From Agathobaculum sp. NTUH-O15-33 (GTDB lineage: Bacteria > Bacillota > Clostridia > Oscillospirales > Butyricicoccaceae): 64,000 nt of DNA. How positions within the stretch are numbered: the stretch's first letter is position 1; every line of letters begins with the position of its first letter. Under the pieces are notes generated by a model that was not told where the DNA came from, did no database searches, and saw only the letters and a list, made by a program, of their open reading frames with translations. The stretch covers positions 1,426,001-1,490,000 of the forward strand of contig NZ_CP136187.1 of the NCBI RefSeq assembly GCF_033193315.1. The letters are read 5' to 3'. Shown here piece by piece: positions 55,186 to 61,899 of this stretch. The position numbers were made by a program, and so were the translations under genes.

Positions 55186-55201
55186 AAACAGGCGTCCCAT
55201 G

Positions 55202-55240
55202 GGGCTGTTTTCTGTCATTGTGCAGAAAGCAGCCCTTTTT
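55202..55240 (+). terminator. Intrinsic terminator of the c-di-GMP leader
   Basis: GGGCTGTTTTCTG and CAGAAAGCAGCCC form a strong hairpin with TTTTT directly after, 17 nt past the aptamer and 40 bp before the start codon. This is the expected expression platform for transcriptional control. Confidence 0.8.
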
Positions 55241-55280: not shown

Positions 55281-58200
55281 ATGAAGGCACAAAAGCGAAT
55301 GTTATCCGTTCTTTTGGCGGGCGCCATGCTCGTATCGCCGGTTCTGCCGGCGGCAAGGGCTGTGGACGAGCCGGCAGGGCGCGGCGAAACGAGCGTTCGA
55401 GGCGGCATCAGCGCGACGCTGCGGCTGGATTATGCGCAGAAGCTGGATGAGATCAAAGAGCGAAACGTCAGCGTCACCCTGATGAAAACGCAGGACGGCA
55501 AAGTAACGGAAACGCTGGGCACCGTCGCGCTGGGGGACGGCGCGCGGACAGGGGCGCTCGACGCGGTTGTTTCCGCCCGCAATGCCGATGGCGGCGAGCT
55601 GGGCGGCAGCGAATGGCCCGGCTATCTGGACGTGTCTTTCGGCGATCTGCCGCGGGGAACATACAGCCTGCGCTTTTCCGGCACGGGGTATACGACCCAT
55701 GAGCAGCCGGTCGATATGGATACTTACGCGCAGTCCGTCGTGCTCGGCACCGGCGACGGCACCTTTGGCCTTGGCGATGTGAACGGCGACGATAAGGTGG
55801 ACGGCGCGGATTGGGACGAGCTGTCCGGCGCGTTGGGCGCCGTGGACGAGGAGCAAATCCGGCAGTATGATCTGAACGGCGATGGCAAGATCGATATCAT
55901 CGACCTTGCCTATATCAGCCGCCAGAGCCATGCCGTGGGCGAAGCCGAAACGTATAACACCGTGCTGCTCGCGCCGCCCGTGCAAGCGGAGGCGTTAAAA
56001 AACGAACTGGAACAAACGCTTGTTATAACGGGCGACGTTGCAAACCTGTTTCAGGAGAATACCGAACCGGTCAAGCTGACCCCTAAGGAGGACGGCAAGC
56101 TCGACATCCCGATCGAGCTGGACAAGTCTGTCGAGATGGAGGTGATCGAGATCGCAACGCCCGAACAGGACGGCGCGATACAAAAGGGCACCGTCATTGT
56201 CGAGGATGAAAACGGTAAAAAGACCGAACACCCCTTTGACAACACCCTGCCAGAGGGCGTGCACGCCATCGGCCGGTCGGCCGGGAGCAACGTGGTCACG
56301 ATCAACCTTGGCGGTAAGGTGGCGGTCAAAAAGGTCACGATCTCGGTCACGCAGACCGCAAGCGGCAACTACGCCGTGGTCGATACCATTCGCTTTTTGC
56401 AGGATATCGTGCCGGAAAACCCCGTCGCGCCGAACAGCGTGGTCAAAACCGTGACCGCCGCGGAGGGGGACGCGCAGGTTACCCTGAAATGGGGCGAGCT
56501 GCCCAATGTAACGGGCTATAAGGTGCTGTACAGCCTTAAGGAGGGCGGCGAGCCCAAGGAGCTGCATGTGGACGTGCCCACCGCCGTGGTAACGGGGCTT
56601 AAAAACCTGCAAACCTACGCGTTTACCGTCACCCCCACAAATGGGGAGTGGGAGGGCAGGCCGTCTCAGGTCGTCGAAGCCACGCCGCAGCCCGCCAAAG
56701 CGCCGGACGCGCCCGACATGGTAAGCGTGCAGGCGCTCGACGGCGCGCTGAACGTTACATGGGGTAAATCCAAGAACGCGACCGCGTACGAGGTCTACTA
56801 TACGGATAAACAAAATGCTTCGGTAAAGGATTATGTCCGCGCGGGCGGCGCGCTCTCCGCGACCCATACGTCTGTTACCGGGCTAACGAACGATACAACG
56901 TATTATCTCTACGTCGTGGCCGTGAACGACGCCGGAAAAAGCGGCCCCTCCAAGATCGTGACCGGCACGCCGGCGGCGGTCAAGTACGGCGAACCCGCGG
57001 GCCTGCCCACGCAGCTGACCCGTATCACGCGCGATCAGGTGCAAAGCATCGCGTTGAAGGATACCGGCAACGTCAGCACATCCAAGAGCACCAAACCCTT
57101 TACGACGGATTACCTGATGGATGGGGATTATCAAACCAACTGGACCTCGCAGTCTTGGGGCGACGGCAACTATACCCGCAGCAAGCAGCTCATTTACACC
57201 TTCAAAGACCCGGTGGATCTAAGCTATGTGATCTATGTGCCCCGGGCGGACGGCTATGAGAACTGTATGCGCCTGTACGGCGTTACGGTCTGGGGCGAGG
57301 GCGACGACCTTGCCGGGCCGGGTACCGTGCTGGTTACGATGAACGGCAAAAACCAAACGCCGGTAAACGGTAAAATGGGCTCCGCGAAGGACGGCTACTT
57401 CGTCGCGCTGCCGTTCCCCGCGACCAAGGGCATCAAAAAGCTGGCCGTTGATATCGAGCAGACGGGGTACGGCGCGGTCGGCCTGTCCGAGGTCCTCTTC
57501 TTTGCGTACGATGAAACCAAGGATCTGGACAAACAGATCGACGGCCTGTTTGAAGATCAGGCCCATACCAAGCTGCGCGCGGGCGTGACGGCGCAGCAGA
57601 TCAGCGATCTTTCCGCGGCGCTTGCCGGGGACGAGGGCTACTATCTCTATCCGAATACCATGAAGGACGAGCTGAAGCTGGCGCAGGAGCTGCTCGCCGG
57701 CCAGAGCGCGGGCGTGGTGCTGCGCGGCGTCACGGCGCGCAGCAGCAGCGCGGATTCCGCGAAGTACGGGCAGGGCGGCAGCGATCTGCAGCCGCTGGGC
57801 GCGGCGGCAAAGGCCGGGCAGGAGATCACGGTCTATGCCGAGGGCATTCCCGCGGGCGAAAGCGTCGCCCTGTGGGCAACGCAGTTCCACGCCGAGGCCG
57901 CCGCATGGCAGGCCAAGGTGGGCGAGCTGCAAAATGGGCGCAATGTGCTCACGGTGCCGCAGATCGGCAGCCAGACCACGCCGCGCGGCGGCAGCCTGTA
58001 CTTTACCTATCATGGCGCGAACGGCGGGCAGATCACGCTGCACACGCGCCGGGCGACCGACGTGCCTGTTTTGGAGCTGGGTAACTGGCATACGCTGGAC
58101 GAAGCCGGGCGCAAGGCGGTGCTCACGGCTTATGTACAGGAGCTTACCGCGTACACCAAGACGATCGCCGATAACGGCAAGCAAAACAACTGCCTGAACG

Positions 58201-60200
58201 TGACCGAGCTTTCCCTCCCCACGGTGCTGCTTTCCCTGCCCGCCACGGCTGTGATGGATAATACCGCGAAGGGCGGCGCGGAAGAACAGGTGCGGATTCT
58301 GTACGACAATGTCCTTGCGTGGGAACAGCTGATGCATATCGCCAAGACGACGCAGGGTATCGACAATACCTATGAAAAGAATGATATGACCTCCCGCCAG
58401 AATATCCGCTATATGCAGATGTTCGCAGGCGCGTTCATGTATGCCGCGGGCAGCCATGTGGGTGTGGAGTACGGCTCGTGCGGCGGGCTGGTATGCGGCA
58501 AGCCAGTGGACGATGCGACGACAGAGAAAAACCGGCTGTTCGGCTGGGGCGTTGCCCATGAGATCGGCCACAATATGGACAAGCTGGGCAAGGCCGAATG
58601 CACGAACAATATCTACTCGCTCATGGTGCAGACCTTCGACGGTAAGGATAACACCCTGCCCTCCCGCTTGGAGGGCGGCAAGTACCCGCAGATCTTCACC
58701 AAGGTTGCGGAAGGCTACCCCGGCGCGTCGGGCGACGTCTTTGTGCAGCTCGGCATGTATTGGCAGCTGCATCTGGCCTATGACAATGGGCAAAACGATG
58801 CAAATGGCCCCATGGATTTCTACAACCGCTTCTTCAAGGCTTGGAAGGCGGGCACATACTTTGCGGGCGCTGTAAGCTACGACGATAAGGTGGCGCTGAC
58901 CGCCGCCGGAACCGCAAACAAAGACCTGACCGAGTTCTTCACCCGCTGGGGTATGCAGCTAAGCGAAAGCACGAAAACCAAGCTTAAGACCTACGAGAAG
59001 GAGCCGCGCGCTATCTGGTATCTGGACGACAACAGCCGCCGCGACCGTTTAAACAGCGTGCCGCAGGGCGCCGGCAGCATCATTGCCACGGCGAAAAAAG
59101 AGGGCGATCATCAGGTGGTTCTCTCCATGCGCGCCGATATGACAGCGGGTAAGGTACAGGGCTATGAGATTCGGCGAAACGATACCGTGATCGGCTTTAC
59201 GACCGAAGCTACCTATACCGATGTGATCGGTTCGGCCAACCACATGAACTTTGCCTACACCGTGCAGGCCTACGATTCGCTGGGCAACGCCATTGGCGAC
59301 GCGGTGCATGCGGGGGATATCCGCGTGGCCTACGATAAAACGCTGCGCGCCGATCAGTACACGATCGACCGCGACGTAGACACCGTGACGGTCACCCTGA
59401 CCAATGGGCCAACCGCCGTGTCCGGCGTCAAGCTGGTCAGCGAAAAGGCGCTCCCGCAAACCGGCGGCTACACCGTTACCGTGACAACGGAGCACGGCGA
59501 TGTGGTGGCAAAGCAGGGGGATTACGGCAAGAATGAAGCGGTGGACGATGCGGACAGCTACCTTGCCTACTTTAACAAGCCCGGTACGGACTCCGCGGAC
59601 AGCCGCATCTGGACGTATGATGCGACGAAGGTCGTCATGACGAATGTGCCGGAAAACGCGGCCGTACAGCTCATCAGCTACGCCGGGGACGACGTGGCCT
59701 TTACCGAGGGCGGCGCGGCAGGTATCCTCAGCGCGGATTATGTTTACGGCACGGAAACGGATGACGTGATCAAAGCGGGCACGCTTGTGATCACCGGCAC
59801 CTATCGCGGCGACCCTGTTTACAACACCCTGCGCGTCAAGGGCGAATTTACCGACAGCGCGCTGGATGCGAACGGGGAACCGCAAGAGCAAACCACCTTT
59901 CGCTATCTGGACGGCTACGCGCTCTTCTTCGCGGAGATACCGGAGGATAAGGAAGTAAGCGATATCAGCGACGGCGTCTTTATTTTCGTACCCAATGTGC
60001 AGCGGGAAGCGGAACTGCAAGGCGGGCAGTCGCACTGCGAGGGCGGCAGCCTGCTGCCCAGCCGCATGATGGCGGAGCTGAGCCGCACGGACGATCCAAA
60101 TAGCGCGGAAAACCAGTACCTAACGGCCAGCACTAGCTGGATCAGCGCGCCCGGCGGGGATAGCCTGCCCACCATAGAACTGAAGGGGGCGATGGAATAA
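55281..60200 (+). CDS. Secreted M60-type metallopeptidase with dockerin-like, Fn3 and discoidin-like domains
   Basis: A 1639-residue exported protein. The signal peptide (residues 1-30, ending PAARA) follows ATG 55281 with GGAG eight bases upstream. In order: an N-terminal beta domain; a dockerin-like pair of EF-hand loops (DVNGDDKVDGADW at 166, DLNGDGKIDIIDL at 197); a further beta domain; two fibronectin-III domains (about 386-472 and 474-570); a discoidin-like carbohydrate-binding domain (about 585-740); an M60/enhancin-like peptidase (about 850-1240) with zinc motif HEIGHN at 1093-1098 and a following Glu; and C-terminal beta domains. M60 enzymes often cut mucin-type glycoproteins. It is coupled to the SLH gene by a TAATG overlap and controlled by the c-di-GMP riboswitch. 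Confidence 0.88.
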   Translation: MKAQKRMLSVLLAGAMLVSPVLPAARAVDEPAGRGETSVRGGISATLRLDYAQKLDEIKERNVSVTLMKTQDGKVTETLGTVALGDGARTGALDAVVSARNADGGELGGSEWPGYLDVSFGDLPRGTYSLRFSGTGYTTHEQPVDMDTYAQSVVLGTGDGTFGLGDVNGDDKVDGADWDELSGALGAVDEEQIRQYDLNGDGKIDIIDLAYISRQSHAVGEAETYNTVLLAPPVQAEALKNELEQTLVITGDVANLFQENTEPVKLTPKEDGKLDIPIELDKSVEMEVIEIATPEQDGAIQKGTVIVEDENGKKTEHPFDNTLPEGVHAIGRSAGSNVVTINLGGKVAVKKVTISVTQTASGNYAVVDTIRFLQDIVPENPVAPNSVVKTVTAAEGDAQVTLKWGELPNVTGYKVLYSLKEGGEPKELHVDVPTAVVTGLKNLQTYAFTVTPTNGEWEGRPSQVVEATPQPAKAPDAPDMVSVQALDGALNVTWGKSKNATAYEVYYTDKQNASVKDYVRAGGALSATHTSVTGLTNDTTYYLYVVAVNDAGKSGPSKIVTGTPAAVKYGEPAGLPTQLTRITRDQVQSIALKDTGNVSTSKSTKPFTTDYLMDGDYQTNWTSQSWGDGNYTRSKQLIYTFKDPVDLSYVIYVPRADGYENCMRLYGVTVWGEGDDLAGPGTVLVTMNGKNQTPVNGKMGSAKDGYFVALPFPATKGIKKLAVDIEQTGYGAVGLSEVLFFAYDETKDLDKQIDGLFEDQAHTKLRAGVTAQQISDLSAALAGDEGYYLYPNTMKDELKLAQELLAGQSAGVVLRGVTARSSSADSAKYGQGGSDLQPLGAAAKAGQEITVYAEGIPAGESVALWATQFHAEAAAWQAKVGELQNGRNVLTVPQIGSQTTPRGGSLYFTYHGANGGQITLHTRRATDVPVLELGNWHTLDEAGRKAVLTAYVQELTAYTKTIADNGKQNNCLNVTELSLPTVLLSLPATAVMDNTAKGGAEEQVRILYDNVLAWEQLMHIAKTTQGIDNTYEKNDMTSRQNIRYMQMFAGAFMYAAGSHVGVEYGSCGGLVCGKPVDDATTEKNRLFGWGVAHEIGHNMDKLGKAECTNNIYSLMVQTFDGKDNTLPSRLEGGKYPQIFTKVAEGYPGASGDVFVQLGMYWQLHLAYDNGQNDANGPMDFYNRFFKAWKAGTYFAGAVSYDDKVALTAAGTANKDLTEFFTRWGMQLSESTKTKLKTYEKEPRAIWYLDDNSRRDRLNSVPQGAGSIIATAKKEGDHQVVLSMRADMTAGKVQGYEIRRNDTVIGFTTEATYTDVIGSANHMNFAYTVQAYDSLGNAIGDAVHAGDIRVAYDKTLRADQYTIDRDVDTVTVTLTNGPTAVSGVKLVSEKALPQTGGYTVTVTTEHGDVVAKQGDYGKNEAVDDADSYLAYFNKPGTDSADSRIWTYDATKVVMTNVPENAAVQLISYAGDDVAFTEGGAAGILSADYVYGTETDDVIKAGTLVITGTYRGDPVYNTLRVKGEFTDSALDANGEPQEQTTFRYLDGYALFFAEIPEDKEVSDISDGVFIFVPNVQREAELQGGQSHCEGGSLLPSRMMAELSRTDDPNSAENQYLTASTSWISAPGGDSLPTIELKGAME

Positions 60201-61843
60201 TGCGGAAACGGATTCTTTGCGCGCTGACCGCGTTGCTTCTTGCCTGCCCCCTGATGACGCACCCGGCCCTTGCGGCCGGGGCGCAGGGCGCGCTTACGCT
60301 GGACTGCGTCCGCGAGGACGACGGGATCGTTCTTTCCGTGGACGGGCTGGATGGCAAAACCAATATCTATGCCGTGCAGCTCGATCTTACGCTGGACGGG
60401 CTGCACCCGGACGCCAGACTGATACCGGCCAGCGCGGATGTGCAGACCCCGGAAAAGAGCGCTACAACAGAAAACGGCAAAACACACCTGACCGTCTATC
60501 TCGATTCGCAGGTGCCTATAAACGAGGGAAAAACGCTGCCCCTCGGTACGCTGACCGCGTCAGACAGCGTGCCGCTGCCTGAAAAGGCGGAGCTGATTTT
60601 ACTGGATCTATCGCTGCGAAAGGTCGCGTTTGCCGGCGCGCCCGCAGTCAGTCTGCCCGGCGGGGAGGACTCCGGCAACACCGGCGGCGACAGCGGCAGC
60701 ACCGGCGGGGATTCGGGCAATACCGGCGGTGATTCGGGCGACACAGGCGGCGACAGCGGCAGCACCGGCGGGGACTCGGGCAACACCGGCGGCGCAGGCG
60801 GTGGCGGCGGTTCGTCGGGCGGCGGAGGCGGCGCGGGCAGCGCCGCCGAAACAGCCGGTAGCAACGAAACCGTTTCCGCCGGTTCGCAGGGGCAGGCGAT
60901 CCTGACCCAAAAACAGCTCGAAAAAGTAAAGACATTGACCGTACAAAGCGGGGAAGCCTCGGTTTTCCTGCCGGAGAGCGCAGTCAAGGCGCTGCGGCAG
61001 GCGGGGACGGACGTGACGCTGACCCTCACTGCCGACGGCGCGGAGGGGCAGAGCAAAACCACACGGGCGCAAACCGGCGGCGCGCCGGTATATGCCTTTT
61101 CCAACGAGGCGGGGGGCAAGTATGTTGCGCTCGGCGGCGGCGTACAGCTCACCGCGCCGTTTGCTGGGAAGGGAACGCCCGTGGCCTATTCGCTCGGCGC
61201 GAACGGGAACCTGTCCCGGATGGGCGCGCTGACCGCGCAAAACGGCAGCGTGACGCTTGAACTGCCATCCGCCACAGCGGTGGCTGTTCTGGATATACGG
61301 CACCGCTTTGCCGACGTCGGCGGCTGGTACGAGGGGTATGTCAACACAATGGCGGCCAAGGGCGTCATGTCCGGTCTGGACGAGAAAACCTTTGGGCCCC
61401 AAAAGAATATGACGCGGGCCGAGCTGGTCACCACGCTGGCGCGTATCAGCGGGGGCAGCCTGCCGGAAGGCGCGGCTGCGGGCTTTGCGGATGTACCGGC
61501 GAACGCTTGGTACGCCCCCTATGTGGCGTGGGCGCATGAAAACGGCGTGGCGAACGGCATGACCGAAACCACGTTTGCGCCCGGCGGCGCGCTCACCCGC
61601 GAGCAGCTCGCGGTCATGCTGGTGCGTTTTGCCGGTATGCAGGGAACGACGCTTTCGCAGGAACAGCAGGCGGCGGAATTTGCGGATGCCGCCACAGTAT
61701 CCGGCTACGCGGCGGACGCGGTGCGGCTGATGCAGCGTTCGGGCATCATCAGCGGCCGGGGCGATGGACGCTTTGACCCCAAGGGCACGGCCACCCGCGC
61801 CGAATGCGCGAAAATGCTTGCGGTCCTGATGGAAGAGCTCTGA
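60200..61843 (+). CDS. Cell-surface protein with cohesin-like domain and three SLH domains
   Basis: A 547-residue exported protein. After a signal peptide (about 1-26) comes a beta-rich domain of about 120 residues (27-150) whose pattern (IYAVQLDLTLD, later LPLGTLTASD and LILLDLSLRKVAF) resembles cohesins. Then follow a low-complexity linker of GGDSGNT/GGDSGST repeats and glycines (about 154-215), a beta domain, and three SLH domains (about 366-547; for example FADVPANAWYAPYVAWAHE) that bind secondary cell-wall polymer. The start overlaps the stop of the M60 gene, so the two are made together. The natural reading is an anchored scaffold for the dockerin-bearing peptidase; the cohesin assignment is inference from pattern. 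Confidence 0.82.
   Translation: MRKRILCALTALLLACPLMTHPALAAGAQGALTLDCVREDDGIVLSVDGLDGKTNIYAVQLDLTLDGLHPDARLIPASADVQTPEKSATTENGKTHLTVYLDSQVPINEGKTLPLGTLTASDSVPLPEKAELILLDLSLRKVAFAGAPAVSLPGGEDSGNTGGDSGSTGGDSGNTGGDSGDTGGDSGSTGGDSGNTGGAGGGGGSSGGGGGAGSAAETAGSNETVSAGSQGQAILTQKQLEKVKTLTVQSGEASVFLPESAVKALRQAGTDVTLTLTADGAEGQSKTTRAQTGGAPVYAFSNEAGGKYVALGGGVQLTAPFAGKGTPVAYSLGANGNLSRMGALTAQNGSVTLELPSATAVAVLDIRHRFADVGGWYEGYVNTMAAKGVMSGLDEKTFGPQKNMTRAELVTTLARISGGSLPEGAAAGFADVPANAWYAPYVAWAHENGVANGMTETTFAPGGALTREQLAVMLVRFAGMQGTTLSQEQQAAEFADAATVSGYAADAVRLMQRSGIISGRGDGRFDPKGTATRAECAKMLAVLMEEL
60661..60840 (+). repeat. In-frame tandem repeat coding for the Gly/Ser/Asp linker
   Basis: Units of about 24 bp built around GGCGACAGCGGCAGCACC and related forms encode GGDSGST/GGDSGNT blocks and then a glycine-serine tract. 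Repeat number could vary between strains and change linker length. Confidence 0.75.
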
Positions 61844-61850
61844 TCAAATA

Positions 61851-61899
61851 AAACAGCGGAGGTAAAACGCCGGTTCACGGTGTTTTTCCTCCGCTGTTT
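61851..61899. terminator. Bidirectional terminator between the SLH and PHP genes
   Basis: AAACAGCGGAGG and CCTCCGCTGTTT form the outer stem around a second small hairpin, with A-rich and T-rich flanks. It separates two convergent genes. Confidence 0.8.

What the first reader, a model, noticed from the sequence alone, without database searches (positions are those of the whole stretch)
55281..61843. Self-contained dockerin-protease and cohesin-SLH scaffold pair
The peptidase carries a two-loop dockerin-like module, and the next, translationally coupled gene carries an SLH-anchored protein whose N-terminal domain has a cohesin-like strand pattern. Together they would form a one-enzyme, one-scaffold surface complex: a minimal cellulosome-like device devoted to proteolysis of host glycoproteins rather than plant fibre. 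This may be the undescribed system of the window.
Basis: partly seen in the sequence, partly recalled or inferred. Interest (0 to 1): 0.8.

Follow-up and report, generated by a model that had tools for sequence, protein, structure and literature searches.

The report
Protease with its own surface dock
A gut bacterium encodes a large, probably glycoprotein-cutting enzyme side by side with a small surface protein that very likely serves as its private docking post, and the same two-gene kit is kept in dozens of related bacteria although the dock has no name in the family databases searched.

Summary
The M60 peptidase (55281-60200) has a two-loop dockerin above the Pfam cut-off, an intact HExxH...E site and a TAATG overlap with the next gene, which has three SLH repeats. 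The N-terminal domain of that second protein is not a recognised cohesin: Pfam does not list it, and profile comparison with true cohesins beats the controls but is weak. The strongest evidence is comparative. In 75 of 75 named relatives with enough downstream DNA the next gene carries this domain, found nowhere else in those loci. Elsewhere in the class it stays beside M60 genes while its anchor changes: SLH, LPXTG, CWB2 repeats or a membrane tail. Three distant M60 genes without dockerin lack it; so does one protease with SLH fused in cis. 23 of 35 genomes with such M60 genes have no Pfam cohesin. Best reading: a dedicated one-to-one docking pair displaying an O-glycopeptidase-type enzyme, working like dockerin-cohesin but with an undescribed receptor domain. 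Binding, calcium dependence and substrate are untested. New variant of a known kind.

The parts
55281..60200 (+). M60 peptidase gene (1639 aa, start ATG 55281), secreted by the look of its N-terminus
   Evidence: signal peptide judged by eye
55401..55754 (+). conserved module N-terminal to the dockerin (residues 41-158), X-module-like by position only
   Evidence: A4 alignment; no Pfam family over its cut-off; highest covariation with the partner domain
55770..55922 (+). dockerin, two intact calcium loops (residues 164-214)
   Evidence: PF00404 33.4 bits, cut-off 22.9; 39.4 bits on the genome DNA; the A4 profile hits solved dockerins, and calmodulins lower down
56430..56966 (+). two fibronectin type III domains
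   Evidence: PF00041, 2 stretches; bounds of the first judged from the sequence
57078..57308 (+). F5/8 type C-like (CBM32-like) region, below the curated cut-off in the window protein
   Evidence: PF00754 21 bits, cut-off 28.2
58320..58952 (+). M60 catalytic domain; HEIGH at 58557-58571, third ligand candidate E1106 at 58596-58598
   Evidence: PF13402; H1093, E1094, H1097 and E1106 invariant in 11 members
59328..60197 (+). C-terminal region (residues 1350-1639), conserved, no Pfam family
60200..61843 (+). partner gene: surface protein of 547 aa, start overlaps the protease stop (TAATG)
60278..60649 (+). partner domain (residues 27-150), 'cohesin-like'; the part of this protein shared by the partners with other anchors
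   Evidence: no Pfam or NCBIfam family in the window sequence
60650..60874 (+). Gly/Ser/Asp-rich linker
   Evidence: translation
61304..61840 (+). three SLH repeats (surface anchor)
   Evidence: PF00395, 3 stretches, E 2.4e-35
61852..61898 (.). inverted repeat AACAGCGGAGG...CCTCCGCTGTT after the partner gene, possible transcript end
   Evidence: by eye; not in the scan

Best explanation
The two genes make a dedicated surface-display pair. The secreted M60 peptidase is caught at the cell envelope by the N-terminal domain of the neighbouring protein, most likely through its dockerin with or without the module before it, and the neighbour's anchor (SLH here) fixes the complex to the cell. The likely purpose is to keep an O-glycopeptidase-type activity at the surface of a gut commensal. 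Shown by sequence: the domains, the intact catalytic and calcium-loop residues, the coupled genes, the near-obligate pairing, the exchange of anchors. Inferred: physical binding, calcium dependence, that the dockerin is the contact, mucin-type substrates. Open: whether the receptor domain is a divergent cohesin or an unrelated fold.
For: (1) Pairing: 75 of 75 named loci with at least 450 b of downstream DNA have the domain in the next gene (weakest 8.6e-16), with 0 other hits at E <= 0.001 in 7573 frames of all 80 loci (the 80 best of 240 relatives). All 18 dockerin-M60 loci at E < 1e-40 in 394 genomes of the order have it. (2) The reverse: of 13 genomes with the domain among 391 of the class, 12 have it beside an M60 gene (dockerin region seen in 11; in G615 the contig holds only the M60 C-terminus); the 13th, G563, is a marginal match in a phage-tail-like ORF. 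(3) Anchor exchange: SLH (75 of 76), LPXTG (22.4 bits, cut-off 20) and CWB2 (E 1.8e-49), membrane tails (by eye). (4) Negative controls: 3 M60 genes without dockerin region in G108 and G173 have no such domain in the stretches fetched. In G344 SLH is fused to the protease, the domain is not found in the locus, and the dockerin scores 10.4 bits, below cut-off. (5) 23 of 35 genomes with these M60 genes have no Pfam cohesin at E <= 0.001. (6) Two such proteases in G044, two partners. (7) The domain follows the protease tree (r 0.81) far better than the SLH part of the same protein does (r 0.31). (8) Overlap or gap of at most 25 nt in 72 of 75 pairs, by a start-site heuristic.
Against: No binding data. 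Given catalytic-domain distance, the partner domain covaries most with the module before the dockerin (0.51), then fn3a (0.45) and the F5/8 region (0.40), ahead of the dockerin itself (0.37), so the contact is not pinned to the dockerin. The domain is not a recognised cohesin. The dockerin-less M60 genes are distant relatives (E 1e-14 to 1e-17), so their lack of a partner may be ancestry rather than function. G344 still matches the dockerin-region profile (E 1.1e-17), and apart from the 11 members other dockerins were not scored with Pfam, so its low score may not be special. In four f76 genomes the partners show no SLH, and Pfam finds no anchor in the one scanned. 12 of 35 genomes, this one included, have a Pfam cohesin in another protein. 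Related genomes are not independent events.
Confidence: 0.7

Rival explanations
1. The dockerin of the protease binds the true cohesin encoded elsewhere in the genome (C1:3114018, in a 2041-aa SLH protein with metallophosphoesterase and phosphodiesterase domains), and the neighbour gene has another role.
For: At E <= 0.001 the genome has one Pfam cohesin, in an SLH protein, and one Pfam dockerin.
Against: 23 of 35 genomes with such M60 genes have no Pfam cohesin at E <= 0.001; it is the neighbour domain that accompanies the gene.
Confidence: 0.1
2. The neighbour protein docks the protease through another part of it (the module before the dockerin, or another domain); the dockerin is only a calcium-stiffened structural element.
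For: The module before the dockerin covaries most with the partner domain; G344 keeps a dockerin-like region although no partner domain was found in its locus.
Against: Dockerin region and partner domain are absent together in 3 distant M60 genes; of the templates tried, cohesin is the best, if weak, profile match of the partner domain, and cohesins are what dockerins bind (established knowledge).
Confidence: 0.2
3. The neighbour is an inhibitor, chaperone or maturation factor of the protease that happens to be surface-bound.
For: Obligate coupling is also what an enzyme-inhibitor or enzyme-chaperone pair would show.
Against: Several unrelated envelope attachments are fused to the same domain (SLH, LPXTG, CWB2, membrane tail), and where SLH is fused to the protease the domain was not found: the shared function is attachment.
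Confidence: 0.07

Closest known systems
Dockerin-bearing proteases bound to cell-surface scaffoldins of cellulosome producers (C. thermocellum S8 protease double dockerin with ScaD; R. flavefaciens X-dockerin cysteine peptidase with ScaE), as described in passages of the review PMC12484212
   Same: A protease is held at the cell surface by a dockerin on a surface-bound receptor rather than inside the main enzyme complex; one case has a module next to the dockerin.
   Different: There the receptors are recognised cohesins in cellulosome systems; here a dedicated one-to-one gene pair, an M60 enzyme, an unrecognised receptor domain, and no sign of a cellulosome in the window genome (one Pfam dockerin).
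SLH-anchored type II cohesins and X-module-dockerin of C. thermocellum (recalled, no call)
   Same: SLH anchor on the receptor; an extra module beside the dockerin.
   Different: No Pfam cohesin here; the relation of the N-terminal module to X-modules was not shown.
Minimalistic cellulosome of C. saccharoperbutylacetonicum (PMC7157769, abstract and section list seen)
   Same: A very small dockerin-cohesin system.
   Different: It is called the smallest cellulosome system known and belongs to plant-polysaccharide breakdown; here one enzyme, one receptor domain, and a protease.
M60-like/PF13402 peptidases, Nakjang et al. 2012 (PMC3267712, passages and section 8 seen)
   Same: Same catalytic family; of 415 such proteins their Table 4 lists 2 with dockerin, 1 with SLH, 5 with the LPXTG-type anchor, 78 with CBM32 and 30 with fn3.
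   Different: The word cohesin does not occur in the main text, and the sections seen describe no partner gene; their Figure 4 legend marks the anchor of the drawn Clostridium and Bacillus proteins as unknown.

Membership tests
Dockerin (PF00404) | Profile match above the curated cut-off | tested here: met
   33.4 bits against 22.9; 11 of 11 members of A5, the window included, match at E <= 0.01
Dockerin (PF00404) | Two intact calcium-binding loops | tested here: met
   D-x-N-x-D-x-x-x-D-x-x-D twice, residues 166-177 and 197-208 (sequence)
Dockerin (PF00404) | Calcium-dependent binding to a cohesin | not testable with these tools
   needs a binding assay
Cohesin (PF00963) | Profile match above the curated cut-off | tested here: not met
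   no match in the window protein; not among the 25 families shown of 48 for 76 proteins or of 37 for 69 domains
Cohesin (PF00963) | Homology by profile-profile comparison | tested here: inconclusive
   local P 0.0012-0.004, probability 8-20%; block shuffles reaching it: 2 of 100, 5 of 150, 0 of 150 local and global for the divergent set; true cohesin halves give 99.6-99.8% and cohesin against CARDB 24.6%
Cohesin (PF00963) | Nine-stranded jelly-roll fold | not testable with these tools
   structure prediction was not accepted
Cellulosome | Scaffoldin with several cohesins and several dockerin enzymes | tested here: not met
   one receptor domain in the partner; one Pfam dockerin and one Pfam cohesin in the genome
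Peptidase M60 (PF13402) | Profile match and HExxH with a downstream Glu | tested here: met
   E 2e-17; H1093, E1094, H1097, E1106 invariant in 11 members
Peptidase M60 (PF13402) | Cleavage of O-glycoproteins | not testable with these tools
   needs an enzyme assay
SLH-anchored surface protein | Three SLH repeats | tested here: met
   PF00395, 3 stretches; signal peptide by eye only

The most novel reading that the evidence does not exclude
The partner domain founds an undescribed receptor family, either a new cohesin type outside current profiles or an independent fold that took up dockerin binding. Clostridia use it as an exchangeable adaptor ('one protease, one dock, any anchor') to display M60 O-glycopeptidases, outside any cellulosome.
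Probability: 0.55. Interest if true: 0.72.

Novelty: new variant of a known kind. Interest (0 to 1): 0.6.

Why it matters
It would move dockerin-based assembly from plant-fibre machines to a one-to-one display device for probable mucin-type proteases in bacteria recorded as Butyricicoccus, Flavonifractor, Oscillibacter and others, and would answer for this group how such M60 enzymes are held on the cell, left open as '?-anchor' for other Gram-positives in 2012. It would give a function to a conserved surface protein that sources name 'hypothetical protein' or DUF5305 protein (names seen only for relatives of the G261 member). The naturally exchanged anchors make the claim testable with two short recombinant fragments, and a new receptor could be useful for protein engineering.

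Tried and rejected
Structure prediction and fold search: not available, so the cohesin fold could not be tested directly. Sequence search of the domain against PDB sequences: 0 hits, then 2 adhesin hits at E 0.6-0.7, no cohesin. Search of the protein database with the window domain found 2 near-identical proteins only; with two divergent members, 8 and 6 proteins at 58-100% identity, none carrying PF00963. The idea that the protease C-terminal region is itself a cohesin: pieces C1-C4 score at most 17.7 against true cohesins, dropped. The mirror-tree test was meant to single out the dockerin and did not. G028 could not be judged, its contig ends inside the M60 gene. L028 (G166) has the domain but only a C-terminal M60 piece next to it and no dockerin could be seen. 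CBM_3 as a control family gave matches in only 3 of 98 genomes and was not used.

Literature: dockerin+cohesin+M60+mucin (5 papers), dockerin+cohesin+protease+SLH+gut, dockerin+'peptidase M60', dockerin+mucinase, noncellulosomal+cohesin+dockerin (47 of which 10 were listed), and C. perfringens+dockerin+cohesin+FIVAR. The listings (titles, abstract starts) show no description of such a pair; subscription journals are mostly not held.

Rows dropped: of the 80 named loci, 5 have under 450 b downstream (L086, L113, L122, L143, L147), and L114 has no dockerin-profile match because its M60 frame is short (735 aa). The mirror-tree left out L129 and L114 and then near-duplicates (74 to 68). One of 30 cohesin loci (L173) was clipped and left out. 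Of 30 Big_2 loci 24 entered the control; of 30 CARDB loci I gave 22 and 21 entered. Alignment A7 holds 69 of 76 domain sequences.
Full report
What is there. The window lies in a 4.0 Mb single-contig genome; both genes are about 98% identical to those of Butyricicoccus faecihominis DFI.6.109 (L074), family Butyricicoccaceae in NCBI's taxonomy. The protease gene 55281-60200 encodes 1639 residues: a conserved module (41-158), a dockerin (164-214), two fn3 domains, an F5/8-like region below the Pfam cut-off, the M60 catalytic domain (1014-1224) and a conserved C-terminal region without a Pfam family. The catalytic residues H1093, E1094, H1097 and E1106 are invariant in 11 members. The partner gene starts inside the stop codon of the protease (TAATG) and encodes a signal peptide (by eye), a domain of about 125 residues, a Gly/Ser/Asp linker and three SLH repeats.

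Is the N-terminal domain a cohesin? By the membership rule, no. Pfam lists nothing there in the window protein. Among 76 homologous proteins SLH is found in 75, and Cohesin is not among the 25 families shown of 48; among 69 domain sequences it is not among the 25 shown of 37. NCBIfam finds no family in the window sequence, and only stray matches of E 0.01 or worse, in one or two members each, among the 69. PDB sequence searches gave no cohesin. Profile-profile comparison with 29 true cohesins of the same order gave P 0.004 and probability 8.4%, with a 72-column local alignment. 0 of 100 column shuffles, 0 of 100 reversed-block shuffles and 2 of 100 block shuffles reached that score. Thirteen other templates cut from the protease scored 19.0 at most against 21.5. 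Adding ten further members raised the match to 11.6% (5 of 150 block shuffles reach it), and those ten alone gave 19.6%, P 0.0012, with 0 of 150 shuffles reaching it locally or globally; Big_2 and CARDB scored much lower. Against this: true cohesins compared with each other give 99.6-99.8%, and cohesins against CARDB, another beta-sandwich family, give 24.6%. So the domain is probably a beta-sandwich and perhaps a far cohesin relative; the sequence says no more.

The pair is a unit. In 87 genomes of the family, 6 have the domain, and in all 6 the gene beside it is the M60 gene, broken by a frameshift in G055. In 394 genomes of the order a narrow domain profile found 9 genomes; 8 have the M60-dockerin gene beside it, and G166 has only a C-terminal M60 piece. 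In a search of 394 genomes of the order the dockerin-region profile found 18 loci at E < 1e-40, in 17 genomes; all 18 have the domain in the next gene. Four weaker loci were judged further: G266 and G369 have a next gene with the domain (E 0.012 with the narrow profile; E 1.5e-10) and a membrane tail; G344 has none, see below; G028 ends with its contig. The many other matches (176 of 394 genomes in all have a match) cover mainly the dockerin part, were taken to be dockerins of other proteins and were not examined, G261 excepted (below). Of these, 75 have at least 450 b after the M60 gene, and 75 of 75 have the domain there, the weakest at 8.6e-16; no other frame among 7573 has it at E <= 0.001 (with the first, narrower profile 74). 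79 of 80 M60 frames match the dockerin-region profile; the 80th, L114, is a short frame. By a start-site heuristic 42 of 75 gene pairs overlap and 72 of 75 overlap or lie within 25 nt.

The reverse test. Searching 391 genomes of the class with the domain alone gave 13 genomes. In 12 the domain lies beside an M60 gene: in 11 the dockerin region is seen, in G615 only the C-terminal M60 piece is on the contig. In one, G563, it is a marginal match (E 8.6e-4) inside a phage-tail-like ORF.

The anchor is exchangeable, the domain is not. The partners among the named relatives carry SLH (75 of 76 with the window, the odd one cut by its contig end). G725 has an LPXTG anchor (PF00746, 22.4 bits, cut-off 20) and G726 has CWB2 repeats (E 1.8e-49); G261, G266 and G369 end in membrane tails (by eye). 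Four f76 genomes have partners without SLH; Pfam finds no anchor in the one scanned. In G344 the protease itself ends in SLH repeats, the domain was not found in that locus, and the dockerin falls to 10.4 bits, below the cut-off of 22.9, although our own dockerin-region profile still matches (E 1.1e-17). An M60 search of 216 genomes of the order found 15: 12 have the pair, G166 has the M60 piece with the domain, and G108 (two genes) and G173 (one) have neither dockerin region nor partner domain in the stretches fetched. Those three genes are distant relatives, so this control is weak. G044 has two such proteases and two partners, one of them with an interrupted frame. The pattern fits attachment as the shared function.

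Partners elsewhere. At E <= 0.001 this genome has one Pfam dockerin and one Pfam cohesin, the latter in a 2041-aa protein with metallophosphoesterase, laminin-G, phosphodiesterase, FIVAR and SLH domains. It is a possible competitor. But of 35 genomes examined that have these M60 genes (G344, G166 and G615 included), 23 have no Pfam cohesin at E <= 0.001 and 12 have one or more. In the 23 the neighbour is the only candidate in sight, G344 excepted, which has no such neighbour.

Coevolution. Over 68 non-redundant pairs the partner domain follows the catalytic-domain distances (r 0.81), the SLH part of the same protein much less (r 0.31). With catalytic distance held constant, the module before the dockerin scores highest (0.51), then fn3a 0.45, F5/8 0.40, dockerin 0.37, the stretch after it 0.35; the C-terminal pieces C2-C4 0.08-0.24. 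The test supports a tie between domain and protease, weighted to its N-terminal half, but does not single out the dockerin.

Function. M60-like peptidases were described as a family linked to mucosal hosts and rich in glycan-binding domains (PMC3267712, passages and section 8; other M60 work seen only as listings). That this one cuts host glycoproteins is an inference from the family. One relative (L010) has an M64 'IgA peptidase' gene with F5/8, Rib and SLH domains next to the pair.

What is known. Proteases docked on cell-surface scaffoldins exist in cellulosome producers (review PMC12484212, passages seen), and in 2012 dockerin was listed in 2 and SLH in 1 of 415 PF13402 proteins, with the anchor of the drawn Clostridium and Bacillus members marked unknown. 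The searches named under Tried and rejected found no description of this gene pair in the listings of the open library. So what it works like is known; the dedicated pair, the receptor domain and the exchange of anchors appear new.

Verdict. A real, conserved, dedicated docking pair (confidence 0.7 for the mechanism as stated). Receptor domain: unnamed, cohesin-like at best. New variant of a known kind; interest 0.6.

Noticed in passing
window 55201-55236: A 15-pair hairpin followed by T's about 45 b upstream of the protease start; could end the preceding unit or attenuate the pair (the total of such sites is at chance level).
   Followed up: no
G000:C1:3114018-3114407 (L001, L014): The only Pfam cohesin found in the genome sits inside a 2041-aa SLH protein with metallophosphoesterase, laminin-G, phosphodiesterase and FIVAR domains, followed closely by a single dockerin-like loop (by eye).
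   Followed up: partly
L010 3675-7112 (-): An M64 'IgA peptidase' with F5/8, Rib and SLH domains lies directly after the pair in a relative.
   Followed up: partly
window 59328-60197: The C-terminal region of the protease is strongly conserved (GTYRGDPVYN stretch) and has no Pfam family.
   Followed up: partly
L011, L062, L066, L114, L028: Frames of the pair are interrupted in several relatives; assembly errors or decay not told apart.
   Followed up: no
L210 3569-4657 (-): The partner of G261 combines the domain with a FIVAR domain just below its cut-off and a membrane tail.
   Followed up: partly
window about 30000-54963: The genes before the pair read like a cobalamin (B12) cluster; names recalled from reading the translations, no family search made.
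   Followed up: no
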